From assembly GCA_029932675.1 (NCBI GenBank), contig JAOZPP010000007.1, forward strand, positions 1-64,000: 64,000 bases of DNA, written 5' to 3'. The position numbers were made by a program, and so were the translations under genes. Below the pieces are notes generated by a model, which ran no database searches, had not been told where the DNA came from, and was given only the letters and a program-made list of their open reading frames with translations. The first letter of the stretch is position 1, and every line of letters begins with the position of its first letter. Below are positions 1-64,000 of this stretch, in pieces. This DNA is from a bacterium. GTDB taxonomy: Bacteria; SM23-81; DAOVCL01.

Positions 1-1181
1 AACCCGTTTCCAGTCAACTGCACCATCCAGTTCTGTCCTCCATCACAACTATGAATGATCCCTGGGGGATTAGATCCGTGTGTACAGTGACCCACTATCC
101 AACCATTTTCTTGATCTAAAAAAGAGACATCATGAAGCCGAAGCAAACCATTCAATCCTCCATTCTGGGTATCCCATTTCTTCCCTCCATTATCAGTGTG
201 TGTTATTCTCCCATTATCTCCCACTGCCCATCCATTGTTGCTATCTGGGAAACAGATACCAACAAGGTAGGTGTCGTAGTCTTCATCTACAAGGATCTGT
301 TGATTCCAGGTTGTCCCGCTGTTTGAGGTGTGGAAAATAATCCCCGAATAATACCAATCCCAGATGTATCCCGCCATCCAACCATTCTGCACATCGGTGA
401 AGGTTAAATCATCAATCAAGAGCCCAAATTCGTTCTGAACCTCCCAGTTTTCTCCTCCATTTGAGGTATGGAAAACCATTGTCCCCATACCCCCATCTAC
501 CCATCCCCCTAATGCCCAGCCATTGAGAGAATCAACAAAGGTAACTACACTGAGGAAACTTGCAATGGGATAAAATGCATCTGAGGCATCCTCCCAGCTT
601 TGTCCCCCGTCCATAGTGTGATAGGCAATTCCATATGTCCAGTTATCTCCTCCCCAATCATCATACCCCACAGCCCACCCATTAAGAGAGTCGGCAAAGG
701 CGATGTCATTGAGATGCCTATAGCTCTCTCCGCTCATCTGAGTAGTCCAGGAGCTCCCTCCATCAGTGGTGTGAAGGATCAGCTCATAGTCCCCCACCAC
801 CCAACCATTGGAAGTATCCTTAAAGGTTACTCCATTGAGCCAATGGCTGGTCCCACTCTTCTGTTTTTCCCACCTTTCTCCTCCGTTTCTAGTGTGGAGG
901 ATGGTTCCACCTTCTCCTACTACCCACCCCTTCAGTGAATCAACAAAACAAATCCCAGTGAACCAAGACCAGGCTCCACTTGATTGGAGACTCCAGTTTT
1001 TACCCCCATCCTCAGTATGGATGATGGTCCCGTTTTGTCCTATTGCCCATCCCCTCAGAGTATCAACAAAATCAACCTTCTGAAGGCAATTCCCCTGGCT
1101 CTGGCAGATCCATCCTCCACCCAGAACCCTGCTCCCCAGCAAAAGAAACAAAACCGCCATCCACAAAAATACCTTTCTCAT
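1..1181 (-). CDS. Exported YCF48/BNR-type beta-propeller repeat protein (C-terminus off the left edge)
   Basis: Reverse-strand translation from ATG at 1181: MRKVFLWMAVLFLLLGSRVLGGGWICQSQ... with repeated FVDSLxGWxVGxxGTIxHTxDGGxxW units; open to the window edge, so absent from the ORF track. Confidence 0.8.
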   Translation of the reverse strand, partial: MRKVFLWMAVLFLLLGSRVLGGGWICQSQGNCLQKVDFVDTLRGWAIGQNGTIIHTEDGGKNWSLQSSGAWSWFTGICFVDSLKGWVVGEGGTILHTRNGGERWEKQKSGTSHWLNGVTFKDTSNGWVVGDYELILHTTDGGSSWTTQMSGESYRHLNDIAFADSLNGWAVGYDDWGGDNWTYGIAYHTMDGGQSWEDASDAFYPIASFLSVVTFVDSLNGWALGGWVDGGMGTMVFHTSNGGENWEVQNEFGLLIDDLTFTDVQNGWMAGYIWDWYYSGIIFHTSNSGTTWNQQILVDEDYDTYLVGICFPDSNNGWAVGDNGRITHTDNGGKKWDTQNGGLNGLLRLHDVSFLDQENGWIVGHCTHGSNPPGIIHSCDGGQNWMVQLTGNG

Positions 1182-1432
1182 CTTTCGACCCCCCGGTATA
1201 GAGTTCTTTGAGTCAACTCAGTTCATTGGGTGCGTTGAGTCATCTCGCATTTTGGAGTTACGAGTAACGATCTACAATCCACGAACAACGCGCCCTCTCT
1301 ATCGGGAATCCTCTGCCATACCCCCCTCTTTTTCTTTGGTGGTTTCTCCAGTTTAAGCTCCAGCCTTAATTCTGGCTTTGGTTCTTTATCATCGTCAGAT
1401 TCCATAAGGCTCACTCCTCCTCCTTCACTGAG

Positions 1433-1549
1433 CCGTCAGATCCCCGAATCTGACGGTCTGGTTCTGGTGTGGTAACTCCTGTTGAGACAGGCTGTGATAG
1501 GAGTCACAGCACTTCAAAGGCAGGTGGCAGAACCGGGGTTCTGCCACCT
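1433..1549 (-). repeat. Composite three-hairpin element (left copy), upstream of the YCF48-like gene
   Basis: Minus strand order B-A-C: AGGTGGCAGAACCccGGTTCTGCCACCT (1549-1522), GTGCTGTGACTCCTATCACAGCCTGTCTCAACAGGAGTTACCACACC (1512-1466), CCGTCAGATtcggggATCTGACGG (1456-1433); aligns to 60846-60962. Confidence 0.75.
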
Positions 1550-1618
1550 CGATGTAATTTGTGTTCCTCATCGGAGGTGGCAGGCAGGGCAAAGCCTACG
1601 GGCATCTCCGCTATGTTT

Positions 1619-1645
1619 GGTGGCAGAATCAAGGGTTCTGCCACC
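1619..1645. repeat. Extra copy of the GGTGGCAGAA...TTCTGCCACC palindrome
   Basis: GGTGGCAGAAtcaagggTTCTGCCACC, 10-bp perfect arms. Confidence 0.8.
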
Positions 1646-1768
1646 TCATTGTTCCCTAATGCTGTCTCCAACTACCAAAGAAGACGGCACCGGCTTCCCC
1701 TGCCCGCCCAAGCCACGGACAAGCGGAGACATTTAGACATAAGGCAAAAACCATGCCAGAATAGGCTA

Positions 1769-1801
1769 AAAAATAAAAAAACCACTTAATTTCTTAAGTG
1801 G
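1769..1801 (-). terminator. Rho-independent terminator downstream of the sigma54 regulator
   Basis: Minus strand CCACTTAAgaaaTTAAGTGG followed by TTTTTTTATTTTTT. Confidence 0.75.
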
Positions 1802-1984: not shown

Positions 1985-4909
1985 TTAACGCGCTGATCTC
2001 CTTCCCTCAATATGATACTTTTCCATTTTCCTGTTCAAGGTCGGCCTTGAAATCCCTAAAACAGAACAGGCTTCTACCTTCTTCCAACCTGTCTGCTCCA
2101 ATACCCGCAGTATATGCACCCTTTCAGCCTCTTCCAATGAAATCCCATCAAGAGCTTGAAGACTTCCTTCTTCCAAATGTCCCTTTAGCCTCATCCCTTC
2201 TGACAGGTGCTCGGGGGTGATCTGGTCCCCTTCCTCGGCCATAAGCACCGCCCTTTCCATCTCATTCTTCAACTCCCGCACATTACCCGGCCAATGGTAG
2301 CCCTCTAAAAGCCTTAGAGCCTCCTCACTTATCCCCCGCAGGCTCTTCTTGAACTGATAGGAGTAAATACCCAGGAAATGGTGGGCCAAAAGTCTGATGT
2401 CATCCCTCCTCTCCCGCAGAGGAGGAAGATCCAATACTATCTGCTTGAGCCTGTAGTAGAGATCCTCCCTAAATCTCCCCTTCCTTATCTCCTCTGCCAA
2501 GTCCTTGTTGGTAGCCGCTATCACCCGCACGTCTATACTCCTCTCCTCGTTGCCTCCCACCCGGCGAACTTTCCCCTCCTCCAGCACCCGCAAAAGCTTG
2601 GCCTGATGGCCGAGGCTCAGATTCCCCACCTCGTCCAGGAAAAGTGTCCCCCCATTAGCCTCCTCAATTAACCCCTTCCGCGGCACAGCTCCGGTAAATG
2701 CTCCTCGCTCACAGCCAAAGACCTCGGCCTCAAACAGATCATTGGGTATGGCCCCACAATTTATGGGGATAAGTTTGTTAGTGTTCCTTTGACTGGCAAA
2801 ATGAATCTTCCGCGCTACCAACTCCTTCCCTGTCCCCGATTCGCCCTGAATGAGCACAGTAGCTTTAGAGTCCTTGACCTTATCTGCTTCCTTTAGCACC
2901 TTTAACATCTTCTCATTCTGGGTGATTATCTCCTCAGGCACTACCCCCTGCACTGCCAGCCTCTGCCTTAAGCTCAGATTTGCCTTCTCCAACTCCCTTT
3001 GCCTCTGCGCCACAATCGCCTTAGCTACCCTCTCGGAGAGAAGATAGAATAAATCCAACTCCTTCTCCAAAAAAGGCTCCTTGCCCCTCTGCCGATCCAC
3101 ATAGAGGTAACCATCTATCCTCTCCCTACTCCCATAGGGGATCAACATTAGGCTACCAGCCCCCACAGCGGAGAACCGCTCATCCAGGGAGCTATCATAG
3201 AGGATAGAGGGCCGGCCTACCTCAAAGCCATCCCTGTCTGCACAGACAGGCCCATCCGCTAACAGGGAGAGAAGTCCATTTACCTCCCCCTCACCGAGGT
3301 TATGGCTTGCCCCCACTTCCATCCCCTTGCTCCCATCCCCGGTGTAGGCCACAAACCCCCTGTCGGCTCCCAAAACCTCAATCACTTGGCCAAAAACCTC
3401 CCCCAAATCCCCTGAGGACAACCCCTGCAAAAACTCATACTTCCTGGAGGGAAACCTCTCCAGCCTTTGGTTAAGTTCAAGTTTTAAGGCTCGCACCTCC
3501 TTGAGCTTTTCAGCCTCTCCCTTAGCCCGCAGGAGCTTCTCCGCTCCCTCCAAGGTTTCAATCGCCTTCTTGAAGGAAGGCTCTGCCCTGGCAATCTGGA
3601 GCAGCGCCAGGGCCTGATAGAACTCCGCCCCTTGGATTTGGGCAAAGAGCCTCTGGGCTTCCCGCAAGAGGTCAAGTTCACCCCTTAGCTCCCCCTGGGC
3701 TAAAAGGGTATGGGCTAACTCAAACCTGTCCTCCAGGGAACGGAGGACACATACTGACTTCTCAAAGTTGGCCTCTGCAGCCTTAGAATCGCCTTTGGCC
3801 TGAGCGAGCCGGCCCATCGTGCGGTAACAGCATCCCTCTTCAAACCTGTCTCCCAAGGACTGGGAAACCCTCAGAGCCTCCTGGATACATCTTGAAGCCT
3901 CATCAAGGTCCTTCCCCTCAGCTATGAGCAAGTCTGCCCTCCTCCTCTGCACCTGATTGATGATGTCCTTTTGCCCCAGCTTTCTCCCTATATCCAATGT
4001 CCTCTGGTAATAGTCCCTGGCAAGGTCGAGATCTCCGTTTTCCTTAGCCACATCTCCCAGGGACTCAAGGGACATCGCTTCTTCCCTTCTGTAGCCGTGC
4101 TCTTGAGCCAGGGTTAAGGCTCTTTTCAGTAAATCCTCAGCCGGTTGTCTTTGGAGAGCCTTCAGACGTCCAAGGGATATATATCCATGAGCCAAAGGAA
4201 TTGGATCGCCCATTCTTTTCTTAATCTCAAGACTGCGATTTAAGTAGTCCTCTGCCTTTACCCACTTTCCAGTTTTCCTATACACTGTACCTATGTTGTT
4301 CAATATAGCACCCTCTTCTCGCTTCCTCCTGACTCTCTTAGAGATAGCCAGCCCTTTTTCCAGATTCTCAAGGGCCATCCCCCAATCTCCCGTTGCCATT
4401 CCCCAAAATGCCAAATCGTTGTATGAGTTTAATGTCTCCCCCTCATCATCTGCTCGACGGAATGTGGAAAGGCTGTCCTGAAGATAATCCTTTGCCTGCC
4501 CATAATCGCCTAACTGAGCGAACGCCCGACCGAGAAACCGCTGGGAGAGTCCTACTAGCCTACTGTGCTCAGTCCTCTTGTAGGACTCATAGACCTTCAA
4601 ACTGAGATCCCTGGCCTCTTCACTTTTTCCCATCTCCAACAGCACATTTGCCACAAGGAGCCGGGCTTTGGCCAATTCTATCTCATCTCCCAACTGAGCG
4701 AAACTGTCCTCTGCTTCCCTTGCCTCCTTGAGGGCTAAATCAAGTTCTCCACTCCGCAGATAACAGAAGGCTAAATCCTTCTTAATTTTTGCCTTCTCTT
4801 TGGACCTTGCCTTCTTCAGAGCCCTTTGGTAAAGCCCTATCGCCTGGGAGAACTTCCCACGGCCCTGATAATCCCTGGCCGATTTAATTAGCTCTGCAAG
4901 TTTTTCCAT
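1985..4909 (-). CDS. TPR-GAF-sigma54 AAA+-Fis HTH transcriptional regulator (locus 1)
   Basis: N-terminal TPR array, GAF-like region, Walker A GESGTGKE, GAFTGA motif (CERGAFTGA), GTLFLDEV, C-terminal Fis-type HTH (VEACSVLGISRPTLNRKM). Confidence 0.93.
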   Translation of the reverse strand: MEKLAELIKSARDYQGRGKFSQAIGLYQRALKKARSKEKAKIKKDLAFCYLRSGELDLALKEAREAEDSFAQLGDEIELAKARLLVANVLLEMGKSEEARDLSLKVYESYKRTEHSRLVGLSQRFLGRAFAQLGDYGQAKDYLQDSLSTFRRADDEGETLNSYNDLAFWGMATGDWGMALENLEKGLAISKRVRRKREEGAILNNIGTVYRKTGKWVKAEDYLNRSLEIKKRMGDPIPLAHGYISLGRLKALQRQPAEDLLKRALTLAQEHGYRREEAMSLESLGDVAKENGDLDLARDYYQRTLDIGRKLGQKDIINQVQRRRADLLIAEGKDLDEASRCIQEALRVSQSLGDRFEEGCCYRTMGRLAQAKGDSKAAEANFEKSVCVLRSLEDRFELAHTLLAQGELRGELDLLREAQRLFAQIQGAEFYQALALLQIARAEPSFKKAIETLEGAEKLLRAKGEAEKLKEVRALKLELNQRLERFPSRKYEFLQGLSSGDLGEVFGQVIEVLGADRGFVAYTGDGSKGMEVGASHNLGEGEVNGLLSLLADGPVCADRDGFEVGRPSILYDSSLDERFSAVGAGSLMLIPYGSRERIDGYLYVDRQRGKEPFLEKELDLFYLLSERVAKAIVAQRQRELEKANLSLRQRLAVQGVVPEEIITQNEKMLKVLKEADKVKDSKATVLIQGESGTGKELVARKIHFASQRNTNKLIPINCGAIPNDLFEAEVFGCERGAFTGAVPRKGLIEEANGGTLFLDEVGNLSLGHQAKLLRVLEEGKVRRVGGNEERSIDVRVIAATNKDLAEEIRKGRFREDLYYRLKQIVLDLPPLRERRDDIRLLAHHFLGIYSYQFKKSLRGISEEALRLLEGYHWPGNVRELKNEMERAVLMAEEGDQITPEHLSEGMRLKGHLEEGSLQALDGISLEEAERVHILRVLEQTGWKKVEACSVLGISRPTLNRKMEKYHIEGRRSAR

Positions 4910-4933: not shown

Positions 4934-5302
4934 CTATTTCCTGAAAACCATCTGCCAGAATAAGAGGAACCTCATCCACCAGTTGGAAGGATGACTTCTG
5001 GGCTTGGTGATTTCTCTATGCTCTCCCTGATAGCTTCCTATCTGAGTCGAACTGTTGGAGGAATACTGAGTCATAGAATGGTTGGCAGGATCAGATACTC
5101 CCTGGTTATCTCCACCCGATGGCCCTGAGTCTCCTCCCGAACCACCCTTGCCCGGATGAGATAACCAATCCCACGGCTCGGCGGCCATAAGCATACATCT
5201 CTCTGGCCCTGTGTTTGCGGATGCCCTCTTCACCGGCAAGAAGCTAAAAGCAGATAAAAGAAAGGCTATGCTCAATAAGATAATCCCAAGCTTTTTCATC
5301 AT
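4934..5302 (-). CDS. Small exported protein, putative signal/precursor peptide (locus 1)
   Basis: MMKKLGIILLSIAFLLSAFSFLPVKRASA/NTGPERCMLMAAEPWDW...; signal peptide; similar to ORF 61027..61350; RBS GAGGTGAT. Confidence 0.75.
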   Translation of the reverse strand: MMKKLGIILLSIAFLLSAFSFLPVKRASANTGPERCMLMAAEPWDWLSHPGKGGSGGDSGPSGGDNQGVSDPANHSMTQYSSNSSTQIGSYQGEHREITKPRSHPSNWWMRFLLFWQMVFRK

Positions 5303-5347: not shown

Positions 5348-5376
5348 AAAATAACAAATTCCTTGCAGAAAGTCAA
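5348..5376 (-). promoter_or_regulatory. Sigma70-type promoter for the small protein/regulator operon (locus 1)
   Basis: Minus strand TTGACT (5376-5371), 17-nt spacer, TATTTT (5353-5348). Confidence 0.55.
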
Positions 5377-5461: not shown

Positions 5462-5556
5462 GGAGGTGGATGGGGGCTGGTGTCCCTGCTGGACTTCAAA
5501 TCCAGATCCCCCGAGAGGATCGGGGGGGTAGGTTCGATTCCTACACACCTCCGCCA
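5462..5556 (+). tRNA. selC: tRNA-Sec (anticodon TCA), CCA encoded
   Basis: GGAGGTG/CACCTCC acceptor, CTGGA-CTTCAAA-TCCAG anticodon arm, long variable arm CCCCCGAgaggaTCGGGGG, GTAGG-TTCGATT-CCTAC T arm, G discriminator, CCA. Confidence 0.95.
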
Positions 5557-5599: not shown

Positions 5600-7438
5600 A
5601 TGGGAGTGATAATCGGGACAGCCGGCCATGTCGATCATGGGAAGACAGAGCTGATCAAGGCTTTGACCCACATCGATACTGATAGACTAAAGGAAGAGAA
5701 GGAAAGAGAAATATCAATCGAATTAGGGTTTGCATGGATTGACCTTCCAAAATCTGGCAGGGTGGGAATAATAGATGTGCCCGGGCATGTGAGGTTCTTA
5801 AAGAACATGCTTGCCGGAACGGGGGGGGTAGATGTGACATTGCTCGTTGTAGCCGCTGATGAGGGGATAATGCCGCAGACAAGGGAACACTTTGAGATCA
5901 TGAGACTGTTAGGGGTGGGGAATATGGTGGTAGCAGTAACCAAGAAAGATCTCGTGGATGAGGAGACCATTGAGCTGGTGAAAGGGGAAATAGGAGAATT
6001 CCTCGCTGGAACCCCCTTCGCTGGTTGCCCTGTGATCATTACCTCTTCCCAGGCCGGCGATGGATTGGATGAACTTAAGGAAGAATTGGACAAGGTCTGT
6101 GCAAAGTTGCCCCCAAAACCCCAGATCGATATATCTAGGCTCTTTGTGGACAGGGCATTCGAAATGAAGGGTTTTGGCACAGTGGTCACCGGAACTCTGG
6201 TATCGGGGAAGATCAGTCAAGACGATCAACTATTCATCTACCCAAGAGGGATAAGGACAAGGGTCAGGGGGGTTCAGGTTCATTATGAGCGGAGGAGGGA
6301 GGCCTGGGCTGGCGAACGGGTAGCGCTTAACCTCGCAGGAGTGAAGAGAGACCAGGTGAGACGGGGCTGCGTAATTTCAGGGGTAGAATACCTTAAACCC
6401 ACAAAGAGGGTCACCATAAGCCTAGAGATCCTCCCTTCAGTAAAGGTCCTTAAGGATTGGACAAGGGTGAGGCTCTACAGCGGGAGCGCGGAGCTTTTCG
6501 GCCGTATCTCCCTGTTAGGGTCAAATGAAAGAAGAGGCGGAGAGAGAACCTTTGCCCAGATCTTTCTGGAACAACCCCATACCTTCCTGGTCGGAGACAG
6601 ATTCGTGCTCAGAAACTATTCTCCCCTCTGGCTCATTGGTGGTGGAAAGATACTGGGCACATCATCTCAGAGGCTCAAGAAAACGGATAGATCCATTCTC
6701 CCCCAGCTTGAGGCCATAGAGATTGGGGGAGCAGAGGCGGCGGTGCTCCTGGAGTTGGAGGACAGTCCCCAAAGGGAAGAGCAACTGCTGAGCAAAATCG
6801 GGCTCTCTTCGATGAGGCTGAGGAAGATCATCAACAAACTTGAAACAGAGGGGAAGGTAATTACTTTAAACCACTACCTTATTGCCAAAAAGGCCTTTAC
6901 AAATCTAAAGAAGAACATCCTTTCCCTACTCCATAAATACTATGAAAAACATCCTTTGAGGCTCTATATGAAACGGAGAGAACTTGCGCAGAGGCTCTCC
7001 CTGTCTAAGGAGGTCCTCAACGACCTCCTCCCCTTTATTGAGGAGCTCCGCTGCGAGGAGGAAAGGGTCTCCCTCAAAGGGTATAAACCTCAGTGGAAGG
7101 ATGAGGAACTGACCAAGCGGAAGGCCATCGAAGAGGAGTTCTTGAGCTCAGGTTTCCAACCGCCAAAACCGGAAGTCAACGAAATTTTCAAAACCCTCCT
7201 TGAGGATGGGACTATTGTAAAGATAGGGGAGGACATATTCCTTCACAGGGAGATGCTGCGGAGGGGAAAGGAGAAGGTAGTGGCACTCATCAGAGATAGG
7301 GGTGAGGCAACGATCAGCGAGATAAAGGACGTCCTCTGCACATCCCGAAAATATACGCTCCCCTTTGTGCAATACTTAGATAGTCTGGGGGTTACCAAAA
7401 GGATCGGCGATAAGAGGGTGCTGGCCAGGGAGGAATAG
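5600..7438 (+). CDS. selB: Selenocysteine-specific elongation factor SelB
   Basis: MGVIIGTAGHVDHGKTELIKALT...; EF-Tu-like GTPase motifs, winged-helix C-terminal region; starts just after tRNA-Sec. The ORF-track start at 5480 lies inside the tRNA. Confidence 0.95.
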   Translation: MGVIIGTAGHVDHGKTELIKALTHIDTDRLKEEKEREISIELGFAWIDLPKSGRVGIIDVPGHVRFLKNMLAGTGGVDVTLLVVAADEGIMPQTREHFEIMRLLGVGNMVVAVTKKDLVDEETIELVKGEIGEFLAGTPFAGCPVIITSSQAGDGLDELKEELDKVCAKLPPKPQIDISRLFVDRAFEMKGFGTVVTGTLVSGKISQDDQLFIYPRGIRTRVRGVQVHYERRREAWAGERVALNLAGVKRDQVRRGCVISGVEYLKPTKRVTISLEILPSVKVLKDWTRVRLYSGSAELFGRISLLGSNERRGGERTFAQIFLEQPHTFLVGDRFVLRNYSPLWLIGGGKILGTSSQRLKKTDRSILPQLEAIEIGGAEAAVLLELEDSPQREEQLLSKIGLSSMRLRKIINKLETEGKVITLNHYLIAKKAFTNLKKNILSLLHKYYEKHPLRLYMKRRELAQRLSLSKEVLNDLLPFIEELRCEEERVSLKGYKPQWKDEELTKRKAIEEEFLSSGFQPPKPEVNEIFKTLLEDGTIVKIGEDIFLHREMLRRGKEKVVALIRDRGEATISEIKDVLCTSRKYTLPFVQYLDSLGVTKRIGDKRVLAREE

Positions 7439-7443
7439 GCCTC

Positions 7444-7481
7444 TGGTAAACCATCGCTGATCAGGTCAGTTTACCATTTTT
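7444..7481 (+). terminator. Terminator downstream of selB
   Basis: TGGTAAAC...GTTTACCA followed by TTTTT. Confidence 0.6.
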
Positions 7482-7519
7482 CCAAAGTTTAATATTGGCC
7501 TCTAAGTCTTCCCGAGACT

Positions 7520-7663
7520 TCAGTCCCCCTTCCCCTTGGGCAGGGGGCGAACGCTATTTGAGCCACATTTAGGGCATTCCCTCTCTTCAGGAACCTTCCT
7601 ATCGTAGGTCCCCTTATAGGTATAGCCACACCGCAGACATTTGAAGGTTACCTCTTCAGCCAT
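7520..7663 (-). CDS. Small zinc-ribbon protein (47 aa)
   Basis: MAEEVTFKCLRCGYTYKGTYDRKVPEERECPKCGSNSVRPLPKGKGD; two CxxC knuckles; below the ORF-track size limit. Confidence 0.7.
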   Translation of the reverse strand: MAEEVTFKCLRCGYTYKGTYDRKVPEERECPKCGSNSVRPLPKGKGD

Positions 7664-7721
7664 ACTTCCATTTCTCCATTCATCTGGGAGAAAAGTGGGT
7701 TGAGGACAGACTGCGGAGGCC

Positions 7722-10133
7722 CTATTTCCCTTTCTCCTCTGATAGAATCCTCATGGTCTCCTCTATCTCCTCCCTTGTTACCGTCTTTCTCAGCTCCTCA
7801 ACGGCATGCATTACCCTCGTCCATTTTACTGCCTCTGCGGCGGAGATCCACTCGAGCTGTAGCCTCTCCGGCCTGATCCCCTTTTGTTCCATCTTATCCC
7901 ACAACTTCTCCACCCTTTTCTGTGTCCACCTGTTTGCATCTATATAATGACAATCAGCGAAGTGACATCCGGAGATGAGCACCACTGGGGCTCCCTTCCT
8001 AAAGGCGTGCCAAACGAATTTCTCAGCCACCCTCCCACTACACATCGTCCTAATCACCCTTCCACTTGGGGGATACTGCATCCGGGAGAGCCCGGCTAGG
8101 TCTGCCCCCCCGTATGAGCACCAGTTACAGGCAAAGATACAAACCTTCTCCTCAGGTCTTTCCTCAAACATCGCATCTATCATTGCTATTATCTGGTCAT
8201 CGGTGAAATGTCTCATCCTCAAGGCATCGAACCTACACTCCGCCCCACAGGTGCCACAACCCTTACAGGCCGCCTCGACAATTGAGGCAGGGGTTTTGGC
8301 CTTCCTATCCACAGTTATTGAACCGTAAGGACAAACATCAACACATATTCCACAGGCCTTGCACAGATCGGGAATGACCTCCGAAGTAATCGCCTCCACC
8401 TTTACCTTACCGGCGGAAAGGAGCGTCTCCGCCCTTGATGCCGCTCCCGATGCCTGGATAACAGATGCCTTAATGTCTTTGGGCGATTCACAACACCCAG
8501 CTAAGAATACCCCGCCTGTCGGCGCATCAATGGGGTTTAACTGATAATGGGTCTCCATAAGGAAGCCATCTGCCGCCTTAGAAAGGGTAAGGAGCCTTTG
8601 CACCGTTTCGGTATCCGGTCTGGGAATCACTCCTATGGAGAGCACAACCATCTCGAACTCATGCCTTTGGATCTTGCCAGTTGTTGTATTCTCCACTGTG
8701 AGGACCAGATTTCTTGTCTTTCGATCCTCAACGATATCGCCAGGAATGCCCCTTATATACTTAACCCCCACTTCTTTGCTCCGCTTATAGAGCTCTTCGT
8801 AGCCCTTCCCAAAGGCTCGTATATCCATATAAAAGACCGTGCAGTCAATTTCGGGGTGATGTTCCTTGAGATAAAGGGTATCTTTAATAGTATTCATACA
8901 ACAGATGTTGCTGCAATAGGGGTTGCCACGCCTCTCCGCCCTTGAGCCCACACACTGAACGAAGGCAATGCTCTTGGGAACCTTACGGTCAGTTGGCCTT
9001 AAAAGCTCACCCCTTGTAACATATCCTGGGCCGGTAAGGATCTCAAACTCCCAAGAGGTAATGACATTTTCGTATTTAGTGTAGCGATATTCATCAAGTA
9101 TAGTAGGATCACAGACATCCATCCCTGTCGCTACAATGGCCACTCCTACATCAAGCTCTAAGATTTCATCCTTTTGATCATAGTCAATGGCCCTTGGGTC
9201 ACAGACCTCTGCACATGCACCGCAGGCGATTGGATTGTTGCCGAGACAATCCTCCATATCGATGAGATAGGACGCGGGAACGGCCTGAGCAAAGGGTATA
9301 TATATCGCCTTCCTCGTTGCCAGCCCGAGTTGGTGTTCATCAGGTTTGACAACAGGGCACACCTTTACACACTCACCGCAAGCGGTACAGGCTATTTCAT
9401 CCACATACCTTGCCTTTTTGCGAACCTTTACATGGAAGTTGCCGATATAGCCCGTGATCTCCTCTATCTCCGAATATGCGAGAAGTTTAATCTTAGGATG
9501 TCGACCGACATCCATCATCCTCGGACCGAGGATTCATATCGCTCAGTCCATAGTGGGGAAGGTCTTATTGATATAAGACATCAACCCACCGATGGTCGGT
9601 TCCTTCTCAACCAGATAGACTTGGTAGCCCGCGTCAGCAAGGTCCAAAGACGCCTGAATTCCAGCTATTCCTCCCCCTATAACGAGGGCGGCCTGGGTAA
9701 CCGGGACCTCGAGCTCCTCTTGCGGCTCCAGGAGTCTTGCCTTAGCCACCGCTACCTTGACGATGTCCTTCGCCTTTTCAGTGGCCTTCTTCCTATCCGA
9801 ATGAACCCAACTACAGTGCTCCCTGATATTTGCCATCTCAAAGAGATAGGGGTTGAGACCAGCGTCAGCGCAGCATCTCCTGAAGGTTGGCTCATGCATC
9901 CGCGGGGTGCAACTGGCAACCACCACGCGATTTAGGTTCTTCTCCTTGATAAACCGTTTTATCTCCTGCTGGCCAGGTTCGGCACAGGTATATCTGTTCT
10001 TCACCGAGAAGACCACATTGGGAAGGGTCCTGGCCCATTCTGTAACCTCATCACAATCTACCGTGCCAGCAATATTTATCCCGCACTCACAGACGAATAC
10101 TCCTATCCTCGGCTCTTCCGCCAATCCAATCAC
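7722..10133 (-). CDS. Selenocysteine-containing HdrA-MvhD fusion (two in-frame UGA = Sec)
   Basis: ORFs 9543..10133 and 7722..9518 share one frame; junction [26 protein letters not shown] aligns with FPTLDCSQCILTPKMVEVGHHP of the HdrA at 50343..52304; C-terminal MvhD domain ([13 protein letters not shown]). Confidence 0.87.
9496..9513 (-). promoter_or_regulatory. SECIS-like hairpin 2
   Basis: GGAUGUCGGUCGACAUCC: stem closed around GGUC, starting 20 nt after UGA2. Confidence 0.5.
9517..9533 (-). promoter_or_regulatory. SECIS-like hairpin 1
   Basis: AUCCUCGGUCCGAGGAU: 6-8 bp stem, GGUC-containing loop, directly after UGA2 and 9 nt after UGA1. Confidence 0.6.
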
Positions 10134-61026: not shown

Positions 61027-61350
61027 ATGGTAAAGAAATTTTCGGTTGGCCTGTTGGTTTTGGTGGTTTTGCTTGGTCCTATTAGTAGCTTCTGGGTAAA
61101 GCCAGCACAGGCCAATACCGGGGATGAGCGTCGGGTAATGCTCTGCGCCGCCTGGCCGTGGGAGGATGGGGGATGGAGTATGGCAACTCCTCCGGGTTCA
61201 GATCAAAATCCGGCAACTTCCCCAACCAATTCTGTCAGGTCAGCAGGCAAACCTGAGCTCCAAAAAGTTCAGCGGAAACCGCAGAAGTCGTTCTGGTCTC
61301 GCTTCCAATTCTTCCTTTTTAACCTCGGGCTACCCTTTGGGGATAAGTAG
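61027..61350 (+). CDS. Small exported protein, putative signal/precursor peptide (locus 2)
   Basis: MVKKFSVGLLVLVVLLGPISSFWVKPAQA/NTGDERRVMLCAAWPWEDGGW...; paralogue of 4934..5302; same TGTGAGGTGAT ribosome-binding context. Confidence 0.77.
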   Translation: MVKKFSVGLLVLVVLLGPISSFWVKPAQANTGDERRVMLCAAWPWEDGGWSMATPPGSDQNPATSPTNSVRSAGKPELQKVQRKPQKSFWSRFQFFLFNLGLPFGDK

Positions 61351-61352
61351 GG

Positions 61353-64000
61353 ATGGAGGTGGGTAGAATGAGAAGAGCCAGGACAAAGCCACGGAAGGAA
61401 GAGGTGGCACTGCGGGAGCTAAAGGAGAAGGTGGAAACCCTTCTCAAGGCGGGGGAGTATGCGCAGGTTGTGGAGGAGATAGAGGCTTTTTCCCAGGGAT
61501 ATACTCCTAAGGAAAGGGACCTGGATTGGGCGGAACTACAGGTGAGATTGTCCTTTGCCCAGGAGCAGTTGGGCAGGTATGATACTGAGGCAGCCGAGGC
61601 GGCATACGAGGCATTAAAGCTCACCGACAGACGAAGGGAAGTAGGTACGGTTGAGTGGATATTGGGGAAGATACTCTTGGGTTTGGGAGAAACAAAGAGT
61701 GCGCTCAGGTATTTGAGGAATAGTTTCTCTGAATTTGATAGAATGGAGGATGAAAAAAGGAAGGCCCAGGTTCTTAATACGTTGGGTCAAGGCTATTTCC
61801 TCAGCGGGTGTTTAAAGGAGGCCGTTAAATATCTCACTGAGTCTCTCGATTTATGCAAGAGGGAAGCTAAGGATGATCAGCGGCTTAAGGCAATGATTTC
61901 GAGCAACCTGGGGACTTGCCATATCTTGACAGGTAAGTGGCCCTTGGCCTCCAAGTTGCTTAGATCAAGCTTGATGTTCTATGAAGCGTTGAATGACACA
62001 TTGAGAATTTGTAGGAGACTGTGTGGGCTTTGTAGGCTCTATATCCTGCAGAGGAGGTGGGATAAAGCCTCTGAAATCACTGAGCTCTTGGAGCGGGCCC
62101 AAAGGCTGGCCCAAGAGGGCGGGTATCAAAGGGAGTTGGCCACAGTCTGGGAGACAAGGGGCTGGTGGGAGGTGGCTCTGGCCCAGCGGGAGGGTGGCTC
62201 TCATTTAGGGGCAGCAGAGCAGGCTTTGATACAGGCCCTGCAGATTGGCCAGCGGATAGCCCCCCAGGGCGATATAGTGATGGAGGCAAGTGAGAGGTTA
62301 GGCTGGGTCTGCCTTATGCGGGGCAGCCTGGAGGGTGCTTTAAGCTATGGGGAGCGCAGCCTGAGGCTTGCCCGGCGGCTGGGCTCCGTTTATGACGAAG
62401 GGCTGGCCCACAGGCTCTTAGGGGCAGTCTATCAGAAGAGGGGCAAGAGAGGAAAGGCGAAGGAGCATTTCTCCCGCAGCATCTCCCTTTTGGAGGAGGC
62501 GGAGGCTCGGTATGACCTGGGGATAAGTCTCCTTTACAGTGGAAGCCTTCTGGTTAAGGATGGGGACTTTCGCCCTGAGGGGGAGAGGCAGTTGCTGGAG
62601 GCTGGGAGGGTATTTGAGGAACTCAAGCTCAGCTACTGGCTGGGAAGGTGCATTGCCCAGAGGGCTCGGGGGTTGATCCTGGATAACCGCTTGGACAAGG
62701 CCAGGGAGGCTCTTGAGAGGGCAAGGTCGTTGCTGGAGGAGGCTGGAGAGGGGGAGGCCTTGAGGGAAGTTGAAGAGGTGGAGGCCCAATGGGAGGGGGC
62801 CTCTGGTCAGGCGATTGCCCAGGCCAGGGAGGAGCAGGAGCTTTTGGAGAGGTTGGGGCAGACATCTGTTGAAGAGCTGGGTAAGCTCCTCCAGGAGGTA
62901 GCTCAGAGGGTAGCAGCCCAGCGGGGGCTTATTGGATACAGGGGCAGTGAGAGGATGGTCTTAGGAGGGCATTGGGGGATGGAGGAGGGAGAGGCCAGGG
63001 AGCTTCTCCAGGAGTTGGTGGATGGGGAGGTGCTTAGGCCCAGGCAGCCAGTTATCTCCTCTTTCGGCTCAGAGGATGCGAGATTTCCCTTTCTGAGGGG
63101 CAGGGGGATAACCAGCCTGATGTTTGTTCCCTTTGGGTTAAACAGCAAGGTAGAGGGACTTCTCTATCTGGACAGGAGATCAGGGGGGCCCTTTCGGCAG
63201 AGGGAGATGGATTTCTTTGTGCGGGCAGCAGGGATGTTGCAGTTTAAGGTGGTGGAGTTTCAGAGGGATGAGCTCCTTCGGGAGAACCTTCTGCTCAAGG
63301 AAAGGCTGGAGGAGGAGTATGGCTTTGGCAACATAGTCACTGTCAACCCCAAACTGAAGCAAGCTCTGCGGACTGCTCAAAGGTTCAAGGATTCCGGACT
63401 TCACATTCTCCTCCAGGGGGAGACAGGGACCGGAAAAGAACTTTTGGCCAGGGCCATTCACTATAGCAGCGAGAGGAGGGGAAAAAAGTTTGTGCCGGTA
63501 AACTGTGCCGCCTTCACCGACACCCTTTTGGAGAGCGAGTTCTTTGGCCACAAGAGGGGTTCCTTTACCAATGCCCTTCAGGACAAGAGGGGGCTTTTTG
63601 AGGAAGCCGATGGGGGGACCTTGTTCTTGGATGAGGTAACCAATGCCAGTGAGGAGTTGCAGGCTAAGCTGTTGCGGGCGATAGAGGAGATGGAGGTAAG
63701 GAAGGTAGGGGAGACCAGATCTAAGAAGGTGGATGTGCGGATAATTGGGGCCACCAACAGGGACCTGGGGGAGATGGTAGAGGCTGGTAAATTCCGCAAG
63801 GACCTCTACTACAGGCTCAAGGGGGTGGAGATAGAGCTACCTCCCTTAAGGGAGAGGAAGGAGGATATCCCGCCGCTTATCAACCATTTCCTCAATCTCT
63901 CTGCCCAGAAGGGAGGGGGGAGGATAAAGGGGGTAACCCAGGAGGCGATGGAACTTCTTGTTGCCTATGACTGGCCGGGGAATGTGCGGGAGTTGAAGAA
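61353..64000 (+). CDS. TPR-GAF-sigma54 AAA+ regulator (locus 2; C-terminus off the right edge)
   Basis: Open frame from ATG 61353 to the window end: TPRs, GAF-like region, GETGTGKELLARAIHYSS, GSFTNA in place of GAFTGA, GGTLFLDEVTNAS, WPGNVRELK. Absent from the ORF track because it has no stop. Confidence 0.92.
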   Translation, partial: MEVGRMRRARTKPRKEEVALRELKEKVETLLKAGEYAQVVEEIEAFSQGYTPKERDLDWAELQVRLSFAQEQLGRYDTEAAEAAYEALKLTDRRREVGTVEWILGKILLGLGETKSALRYLRNSFSEFDRMEDEKRKAQVLNTLGQGYFLSGCLKEAVKYLTESLDLCKREAKDDQRLKAMISSNLGTCHILTGKWPLASKLLRSSLMFYEALNDTLRICRRLCGLCRLYILQRRWDKASEITELLERAQRLAQEGGYQRELATVWETRGWWEVALAQREGGSHLGAAEQALIQALQIGQRIAPQGDIVMEASERLGWVCLMRGSLEGALSYGERSLRLARRLGSVYDEGLAHRLLGAVYQKRGKRGKAKEHFSRSISLLEEAEARYDLGISLLYSGSLLVKDGDFRPEGERQLLEAGRVFEELKLSYWLGRCIAQRARGLILDNRLDKAREALERARSLLEEAGEGEALREVEEVEAQWEGASGQAIAQAREEQELLERLGQTSVEELGKLLQEVAQRVAAQRGLIGYRGSERMVLGGHWGMEEGEARELLQELVDGEVLRPRQPVISSFGSEDARFPFLRGRGITSLMFVPFGLNSKVEGLLYLDRRSGGPFRQREMDFFVRAAGMLQFKVVEFQRDELLRENLLLKERLEEEYGFGNIVTVNPKLKQALRTAQRFKDSGLHILLQGETGTGKELLARAIHYSSERRGKKFVPVNCAAFTDTLLESEFFGHKRGSFTNALQDKRGLFEEADGGTLFLDEVTNASEELQAKLLRAIEEMEVRKVGETRSKKVDVRIIGATNRDLGEMVEAGKFRKDLYYRLKGVEIELPPLRERKEDIPPLINHFLNLSAQKGGGRIKGVTQEAMELLVAYDWPGNVRELK

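What the first reader, a model, noticed from the sequence alone, without database searches (positions are those of the whole stretch)
4934..5302. Candidate undescribed system: exported small protein paired with a TPR-GAF-sigma54 regulator, locus 1
Seen: a 122-aa secreted small protein (signal peptide ending ASA, mature NTGPERCMLMAAEPWDW..., C-terminus WWMRFLLFWQMVFRK) is 24 nt upstream of a TPR-sigma54 AAA+ regulator on the same strand. A paralogous pair sits ~56 kb away (61027..64000). The shared exported motif is ANTG-x-ER-x(2)-ML-x-AA-x-PW. Established: Gram-positive RRNPP systems (Rap, PlcR, PrgX) pair an exported pre-peptide with a cytoplasmic TPR receptor encoded next to it. Inference: this could be an analogous peptide-to-TPR circuit driving sigma54 transcription in a Gram-negative-type anaerobe. 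I do not recognise the small-protein family.
Basis: partly seen in the sequence, partly recalled or inferred. Interest (0 to 1): 0.88.

Follow-up and report, generated by a model that had tools for sequence, protein, structure and literature searches.

The report
Exported small protein plus σ54 switch
In this uncultured bacterium and in distant relatives, every gene for one type of σ54-dependent switch (a protein carrying a peptide-binding TPR coil) sits directly behind a gene for a small exported protein of unknown family; in the home genome the switch most likely turns on secreted surface proteins, which points to an undescribed way of linking what a cell exports to what it expresses.

Summary
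The window gene (4934-5302, minus strand) encodes a 122-aa signal-peptide protein 24 nt upstream of a 974-aa TPR-GAF-σ54 AAA+-Fis activator. The genome holds 13 such pairs, 13/13 in the same order. A regulator search over about 390 genomes, plus focused searches, found the same ~1000-aa architecture in ten family groups and at least three phyla. All 43 loci outside the phylum with upstream DNA carry a 70-130 aa exported ORF directly upstream. Under a fixed automatic rule this was 53/56, against 1/20 for other σ54 activators. The small proteins match no Pfam or NCBIfam family; they share a signal peptide, an acidic Trp/Pro box and, mostly, a hydrophobic C-terminal helix. In the home genome a σ70-like promoter precedes the pair, and a σ54 promoter follows the regulator (11/12), then usually a new ~57-aa ORF and an exported protein, often type IX-tailed. 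RRNPP membership is not met (sizes, output domain, no OppA found). The pairing is close to certain. The mechanism is inferred: most likely the unexported small protein is a TPR ligand whose export reports secretion status (0.4). Re-imported pheromone, arrest leader and co-secreted effector remain rivals.

The parts
5348..5376 (-). σ70-type promoter-like site (TTGACTTTCTGCAAGGAATTTGTTATTTT) upstream of the small gene
   Evidence: Pattern TTGAC(15-19)T[AT]..T found upstream of 11 of 12 small genes; no σ54 site upstream of any of the 12
4934..5302 (-). Small exported protein, 122 aa: signal peptide (1-29), acidic/Trp box AAEPWDW (40-46), low-complexity linker, hydrophobic Trp-rich C-terminal helix NWWMRFLLFWQMVFRK
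   Evidence: no Pfam/NCBIfam family
1985..4909 (-). TPR-GAF-σ54 AAA+-Fis transcription activator, 974 aa, GAFTGA loop intact
   Evidence: TPR coil and AAA+ core predicted with high confidence
1782..1801 (-). Stem of intrinsic terminator (CCACTTAAGAAATTAAGTGG followed by T run) closing the regulator operon
1743..1758 (-). σ54 promoter-like site TGGCATGGTTTTTGCC, 229 nt after the start of the regulator stop codon
   Evidence: 11 of 12 testable loci have such a site within 500 nt, same strand; binomial P about 2e-15
1415..1742 (-). Conserved transcribed leader between σ54 promoter and ORF2, interrupted by short palindromic repeats
   Evidence: alignment; no Rfam family
1223..1414 (-). ORF2, small cytoplasmic ORF; this copy is altered after ...KRGVWQRI, paralogues end ...GREEESRDPSDW
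   Evidence: 11 copies in G000 and 4 in G001; no Pfam/NCBIfam family
1..1181 (-). Start of a large exported propeller protein (YCF48/BNR repeats), probable σ54-controlled cargo; cut by the contig end
61027..61350 (+). Second small exported protein, 107 aa (box AAWPWEDGGW)
61353..64000 (+). Second TPR-GAF-σ54 regulator (969 aa; continues beyond the window); loop reads GSFTNA instead of GAFTGA; σ54 site, ORF2 and beta-helix exported protein follow outside the window

Best explanation
This is one copy of a conserved two-gene regulatory module. A small exported protein is encoded immediately before, and apparently on the same σ70-type transcript as, a cytoplasmic activator made of a long TPR coil, a GAF domain, a σ54-contacting AAA+ engine and a DNA-binding HTH. 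In this genome each activator most likely acts at the σ54 promoter directly downstream of its own gene and switches on an exported protein, often a type IX secretion substrate, usually together with a ~57-aa helper ORF. The most likely mechanism is export-coupled sensing: the newly made small protein is the ligand of the cognate TPR coil (through its acidic Trp/Pro box and/or C-terminal helix), and export through Sec removes it, so the amount left inside reports secretion capacity and gates cargo expression. Shown: gene pairing, order, promoter-like sites, cargo. Inferred: co-transcription, TPR binding, the role of export, and the sign of control.
For: Pairing: 13/13 own genome, 4/4 sister genome, 43/43 outside the phylum; strict rule 53/56 versus 1/20 control σ54 genes and 5/194 long ORFs. 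Order is always small gene first. Shared anatomy: signal peptide, acidic Trp/Pro box, hydrophobic C-terminus in 37/42; box dN/dS 0.18. Regulator modules are a recombination mosaic in which the small protein's linker and C-terminus follow the first TPR third (r 0.85, 0.82) but not the AAA+ domain (r about 0). The nearest solved natural TPR domains by sequence are LGN/Pins and kinesin light chain; kinesin light chain binds Trp-acidic peptides in its groove (PMC6214655). σ70-like site in front, σ54 site behind. Cargo includes type IX-tailed propellers and C25, S8 and M4 peptidases; SprA is present. No OppA.
Against: Two AlphaFold2 runs on read-through fusions gave a disordered acidic box (pLDDT about 30) and no confident docking, though the alignments were shallow. 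The covariation of the C-terminus with the TPR is confounded by physical linkage; TPR-C with GAF is as high (0.87). One small pair is identical (C108, C109) while their first TPR thirds are 68% alike, and C111/C76 show the reverse. A link to type IX cargo is seen only in the home genus; in other phyla the downstream neighbours vary.
Confidence: 0.4

Rival explanations
1. RRNPP-like pheromone: the small protein is secreted and processed, and a fragment (probably the variable C-terminus) is re-imported and binds the cognate TPR, giving cell-density or kin control of σ54 transcription.
For: Paralogous expansion of receptor plus exported partner recalls Rap-Phr; C-terminus and linker diversify with the first TPR third; TPR groove of a peptide-binding type, with RapI among weak sequence matches.
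Against: No SBP_bac_5 (OppA) in either genome although 11 of 14 control genomes ring; proteins are 70-130 aa, not 21-50; the box is nearly the same in most home-genome paralogues and GDDDRWG is the same in every family f71 ortholog recovered; the small gene always lies upstream. Other peptide importers were not searched for.
Confidence: 0.15
2. Export-monitoring leader: the small gene is a SecM/VemP/MifM-like arrest peptide whose stalled translation exposes or couples the regulator's ribosome site, so the regulator is made when export is slow.
For: Signal peptide, disposable linker, C-terminal aromatic/basic stretch ending at the stop codon, invariant position just upstream of the regulated gene.
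Against: C-terminal residues are not conserved as an arrest motif (dN/dS 0.50, weaker constraint than on the box); no consistent hairpin over the regulator start in the home genome (z +0.5, +1.3, -0.9, +1.6, -1.6), though two of the three foreign loci lie lower (-1.5, -1.8) and L151 reaches -2.6; spacing varies from overlap to about -120 nt.
Confidence: 0.15
3. The small protein is a plain secreted or envelope effector that is merely co-transcribed with its regulator and has no role in sensing.
For: It is exported and lies in the same apparent operon; co-transcription of an effector with its regulator is common (general knowledge).
Against: The operon has a σ70-type promoter-like site and no σ54 site, so the small gene is not an evident σ54 target in this genome; pairing persists in phyla where all other neighbours differ.
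Confidence: 0.2
4. The small protein stays at the inner membrane by its C-terminal helix and forms part of a sensor that signals through another, unlinked protein to the TPR regulator.
For: Hydrophobic amphipathic C-terminus in most copies.
Against: No third linked gene is conserved across phyla.
Confidence: 0.1

Closest known systems
RRNPP peptide-receptor systems (Rap, NprR, PlcR, PrgX, Rgg)
   Same: Adjacent genes for an exported small protein and a cytoplasmic TPR protein that controls transcription or signalling; paralogous expansion in one genome
   Different: Receptor is about 930-1040 aa with GAF, σ54 AAA+ and Fis HTH instead of 250-500 aa with HTH_3; exported protein is 70-130 aa with a conserved box; no OppA; diderm phyla
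σ54 enhancer-binding proteins (NtrC, DmpR, PspF, FleQ class)
   Same: AAA+ core 45-52% identical to solved NtrC1, FleQ and related structures, Fis HTH, near-consensus σ54 promoters beside the gene
   Different: TPR coil as sensor plus a dedicated exported partner; many copies have GAFTDA or GSFTNA in place of GAFTGA
Secreted anti-activators (ExsE-ExsC in type III secretion; FlgM-FliA in flagella)
   Same: Proposed logic: an intracellular regulator is freed or silenced by export of a small partner
   Different: No homology tested or expected; export here would use a Sec signal peptide; binding not shown. Comparison from general knowledge
Kinesin light chain and LGN/Pins TPR domains
   Same: Closest solved natural TPR sequences; kinesin light chain recognises Trp flanked by acidic residues (PMC6214655)
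   Different: Eukaryotic cargo adaptors; resemblance of AEPWDD or GDDDRWG to EWDD is only a lead
SecM, VemP and MifM export-monitoring leaders
   Same: Exported leader gene upstream of the regulated gene
   Different: No conserved arrest motif, no consistent junction hairpin in the home genome, regulated gene is not export machinery

Membership tests
RRNPP quorum sensing | Receptor of 250-500 aa with TPRs (PMC10075063) | tested here: not met
   TPRs present but 930-1040 aa
RRNPP quorum sensing | Propeptide of 10-100 aa, validated ones 21-50 aa, exported | tested here: not met
   Exported but 102-122 aa in the genus, 70-130 aa overall
RRNPP quorum sensing | Propeptide and receptor genes directly adjacent | tested here: met
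   60/60 loci with upstream sequence
RRNPP quorum sensing | HTH_3-type DNA-binding or phosphatase output | tested here: not met
   σ54 AAA+ plus Fis HTH_8
RRNPP quorum sensing | Re-import by oligopeptide permease | tested here: not met
   PF00496 absent in G000 (97% complete) and G001; other importers not searched
RRNPP quorum sensing | Peptide binds TPR groove | tested here: inconclusive
   AlphaFold2 fusions show no docking with shallow alignments
σ54 enhancer-binding proteins | Sigma54_activat AAA+ domain | tested here: met
   PF00158 225 bits against cut-off 20.2; fold match to NtrC1 and FleQ
σ54 enhancer-binding proteins | GAFTGA σ54-contact loop | tested here: met
   Window copy 1 GAFTGA; window copy 2 GSFTNA, several others GAFTDA
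σ54 enhancer-binding proteins | σ54 promoter in the neighbourhood | tested here: met
   11/12 loci, P about 2e-15
SecM-like arrest leaders | Conserved C-terminal arrest motif | tested here: not met
   C-termini differ in sequence between lineages
SecM-like arrest leaders | mRNA structure masking downstream ribosome site | tested here: inconclusive
   No consistent structure in five home-genome junctions; the three foreign loci lie lower, with L151 at z -2.6
Type IX secretion cargo (downstream proteins) | Signal peptide plus Por_Secre_tail, FlgD_ig or CHU_C C-terminus, SprA in genome | tested here: met
   Several cargos, SprA; the window's own cargo is cut before its C-terminus

The most novel reading that the evidence does not exclude
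A widespread, undescribed class of bacterial signalling in which a dedicated exported small protein is the cognate input of a TPR-GAF-σ54 activator, linking protein export (or extracellular peptide state) to σ54 transcription in several diderm phyla, with lineage-specific expansion to 13 paralogous channels controlling type IX secreted proteins.
Probability: 0.6. Interest if true: 0.92.

Novelty: new variant of a known kind. Interest (0 to 1): 0.8.

Why it matters
σ54 activators are usually described with small-molecule, phosphorylation or partner-protein inputs. A class that always travels with its own exported small protein, in at least three phyla, has to my knowledge not been described, and the papers found here do not describe it. 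It gives a concrete two-gene unit for testing whether diderm bacteria have peptide- or export-coupled TPR signalling of the kind known from Gram-positive RRNPP systems. In the home genome it also offers a first candidate switch for type IX secretion cargo: 13 copies with shuffled AAA+ modules and diversified sensor and DNA-binding ends.

Tried and rejected
The small-protein profile (A1) alone finds only the home genus in 386 genomes; the wide distribution appears only when the regulator is used as bait and upstream ORFs are inspected. The GTDB-style contig scan returned only the sister genome CSMAG_1030. Known families for the small proteins and ORF2: none convincing; the weak Phr_nterm hit (E 0.05, signal-peptide part, below cut-off) was rejected. 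Rfam: nothing in the leader. A C-terminus/TPR coevolution test came out positive but is confounded by linkage, so it is not counted as proof. AlphaFold2 of read-through fusions for two lineages gave no docking. Foldseek returned only the AAA+ core among the best 50. Literature searches found no description of TPR-σ54 regulators paired with exported proteins. C30 first looked like a regulator without a small gene; inspection showed a divergent one. L164 and L167 looked negative because of GTG starts. In one search, C111 and C98 regulator sequences were trimmed or joined by hand (C98 has a frameshift), so their values are approximate.

Full report
What is there. The ORF at 4934-5302 lies on the minus strand and encodes 122 aa with a signal peptide (cleavage after ASA), a conserved mature start NTGPERCMLMAAEPWDW, a Gly/Ser-rich linker and a Trp-rich hydrophobic C-terminus. 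Twenty-four nucleotides downstream begins a 974-aa protein with TPR_12 repeats, a GAF domain, the σ54 AAA+ domain and a Fis-type HTH. A second pair begins at 61027 and its regulator runs past the window edge. The window lies in a 3.03-Mb, 97% complete genome.

Copies in the genome. The protein search found 12 small genes. All 12 sit directly upstream of a TPR-GAF-σ54 gene. The regulator search found one further full-length regulator, on contig C30, that seemed to lack the small gene; its upstream DNA holds a divergent 104-aa exported ORF with the core EAEPWDD and a C-terminus FWSRVKYFLLSLWR, also found by the family profile. So 13/13. The sister genome has four pairs plus one truncated small gene without a regulator. 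Two genomes of another family in the same phylum have only kinase-TPR-σ54 fusions and no small gene.

Distribution. The small-protein profile does not reach beyond the genus, but the regulator does. In 386 genomes, 17 from outside the phylum had matches at E <= 1e-95, fourteen of them to full-length proteins of about 970-1080 aa and three to shorter GAF-σ54 proteins without TPRs. Reading upstream on the correct strand, each full-length one is preceded by an exported ORF of about 70-130 aa. Focused searches added more loci: 7/7 genomes of one phylum, 5/5 of another, 20/20 of family f71, with the same result. I count 43 distinct loci outside the phylum with enough upstream DNA, all positive; loci cut by contig ends were left out. 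The call on each was partly by eye. With a fixed rule (signal peptide, RBS, length 55-150, within 200 nt) 53 of 56 pass, against 1 of 20 for NtrC-type and kinase-type σ54 genes and 5 of 194 for long ORFs in general. The three failures have the ORF by eye. Families involved: f1, f11, f27, f68, f71, f101, f137, f175, f216 and f228. The phyla of f1, f68 and f101 are shown to be distinct by the phylum searches.

Anatomy of the small proteins. They share no alignable full-length sequence across phyla but have common parts: a signal peptide; an acidic Trp/Pro box (AEPWD in the home genus, GDDDRWG in every f71 ortholog recovered, GDPD-x-P in f68, GDGDIPE, GGGDPDNPVP or DVDPDG[LF]E in f101, HPWDD and EYPWGN elsewhere); and a C-terminal 18-mer that is more hydrophobic than the rest of the mature protein in 37 of 42, with Trp in the last 24 residues in 31 of 42. 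Acidic residues crowd around the Trp more than in shuffles (2.6 versus 1.6, 0 of 500), although the sequences are not independent. In five close f71 relatives the gene is under purifying selection: signal peptide dN/dS 0.16, box 0.18, linker 0.46, C-terminus 0.50.

Operon logic in the home genome. The small gene is preceded by a σ70-like TTGAC-N17/18-TATATT site in 11 of 12 loci and by a σ54 site in none. The regulator is followed by a σ54 site TGGCA[CT]N5TTG[CT] within 500 nt in 11 of 12 testable loci, against an expectation of 0.04 per locus; in several loci a terminator lies between. The next features are a conserved leader, in most loci a new 53-63 aa cytoplasmic ORF2 (11 copies here, 4 in the sister genome), and an exported protein: YCF48 or YncE propellers, FG-GAP, beta-helix; further exported genes near these units include C25, S8 and M4 peptidases. 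Several carry type IX secretion tails, and the SprA translocon is encoded. The window copy of ORF2 is altered at its end and its cargo is cut by the contig start. In other phyla the downstream genes differ, so the conserved unit is the pair.

Evolution. The 13 regulators are mosaics: AAA+ modules are shared almost unchanged between copies whose sensors differ (C7 and C9b: AAA+ 99%, first TPR third 22%), and HTHs are mostly different. The small protein's linker and C-terminus follow the first TPR third (r 0.85 and 0.82) but not the AAA+ domain (r about 0). This is what a cognate pair would show, but neighbouring DNA travels together, so it is only suggestive.

Mechanism. The TPR coil is closest by sequence to engineered TPR proteins and, among natural ones, to LGN/Pins and kinesin light chain domains, with RapI as a weak match. 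Kinesin light chain binds Trp flanked by acidic residues in its groove (PMC6214655); AEPWDD and GDDDRWG resemble such motifs, a lead and not a test. I favour export-coupled sensing over re-import for three reasons: OppA is absent while SprA is present; the box is nearly the same in most home-genome paralogues, so it cannot itself give private channels; and the fixed order fits synthesis of the partner just before the sensor. Two AlphaFold2 predictions on natural read-through fusions (TAG read as a residue) left the box disordered and the C-terminal helix at low to moderate confidence with no confident docking; with 44 and 38 sequences this is weak evidence. An arrest-leader reading is not excluded, but no arrest motif and no consistent junction hairpin were found in the home genome.

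Comparison. RRNPP_Detector defines RRNPP by receptors of 250-500 aa, propeptides of 10-100 aa, TPRs and adjacency (PMC10075063); adjacency and TPRs are met, the sizes, output domain and Opp import are not. The activator is a true σ54 enhancer-binding protein; what is new is the TPR sensor with a dedicated exported partner. I found no paper describing it.

Noticed in passing
window 7722-10133 (-): HdrA-like gene with two in-frame TGA codons; read as selenocysteine it gives [18 protein letters not shown], with a stable hairpin just 3' of the TGAs (z -2.8). A double-Sec CxxC-type site in HdrA.
   Followed up: partly
window 5462-5556 (+) and about 5600-7438 (+): Selenocysteine tRNA (RF01852, 77.5 bits) immediately followed by a SelB-like elongation factor, directly behind the small gene's promoter region.
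   Followed up: partly
window 1223-1414 (-) and 14 homologues in G000/G001: New 53-63 aa ORF2 family without signal peptide, in most copies between a σ54 promoter and an exported protein, C-terminus often DW or GW; also at places without an adjacent TPR-σ54 gene in the stretch read (L142, L144, L133, L135). Its GVWQRIL helix resembles the C-terminal helix of the exported small protein.
   Followed up: partly
L021/L032 (sister genome, contig DAOVCL010000108.1): A truncated small gene whose start region runs straight into an exported propeller ORF with no regulator between, as if a recombination joined the two ends of the cassette.
   Followed up: no
Regulators C7, C9b (window 61353 onward), C30 and many in other phyla: σ54-contact loop reads GSFTNA, GAFTDA or GSFTGA instead of GAFTGA, relevant to surveys that filter activators on GAFTGA.
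   Followed up: no
Leaders downstream of σ54 promoters, e.g. window 1415-1742: Short palindromic repeats GAGGTGGCAGAACCCCGATTCTGCCACC are inserted repeatedly in leaders and near small genes.
   Followed up: no
L017/L025, contig C76 about 7000-7950: Downstream of regulator C76 lies an 85-aa exported ORF (MQSKILRVVVIGML...VICHGWGFTCY), apparently duplicated, with a masked N run, in place of the usual ORF2.
   Followed up: no
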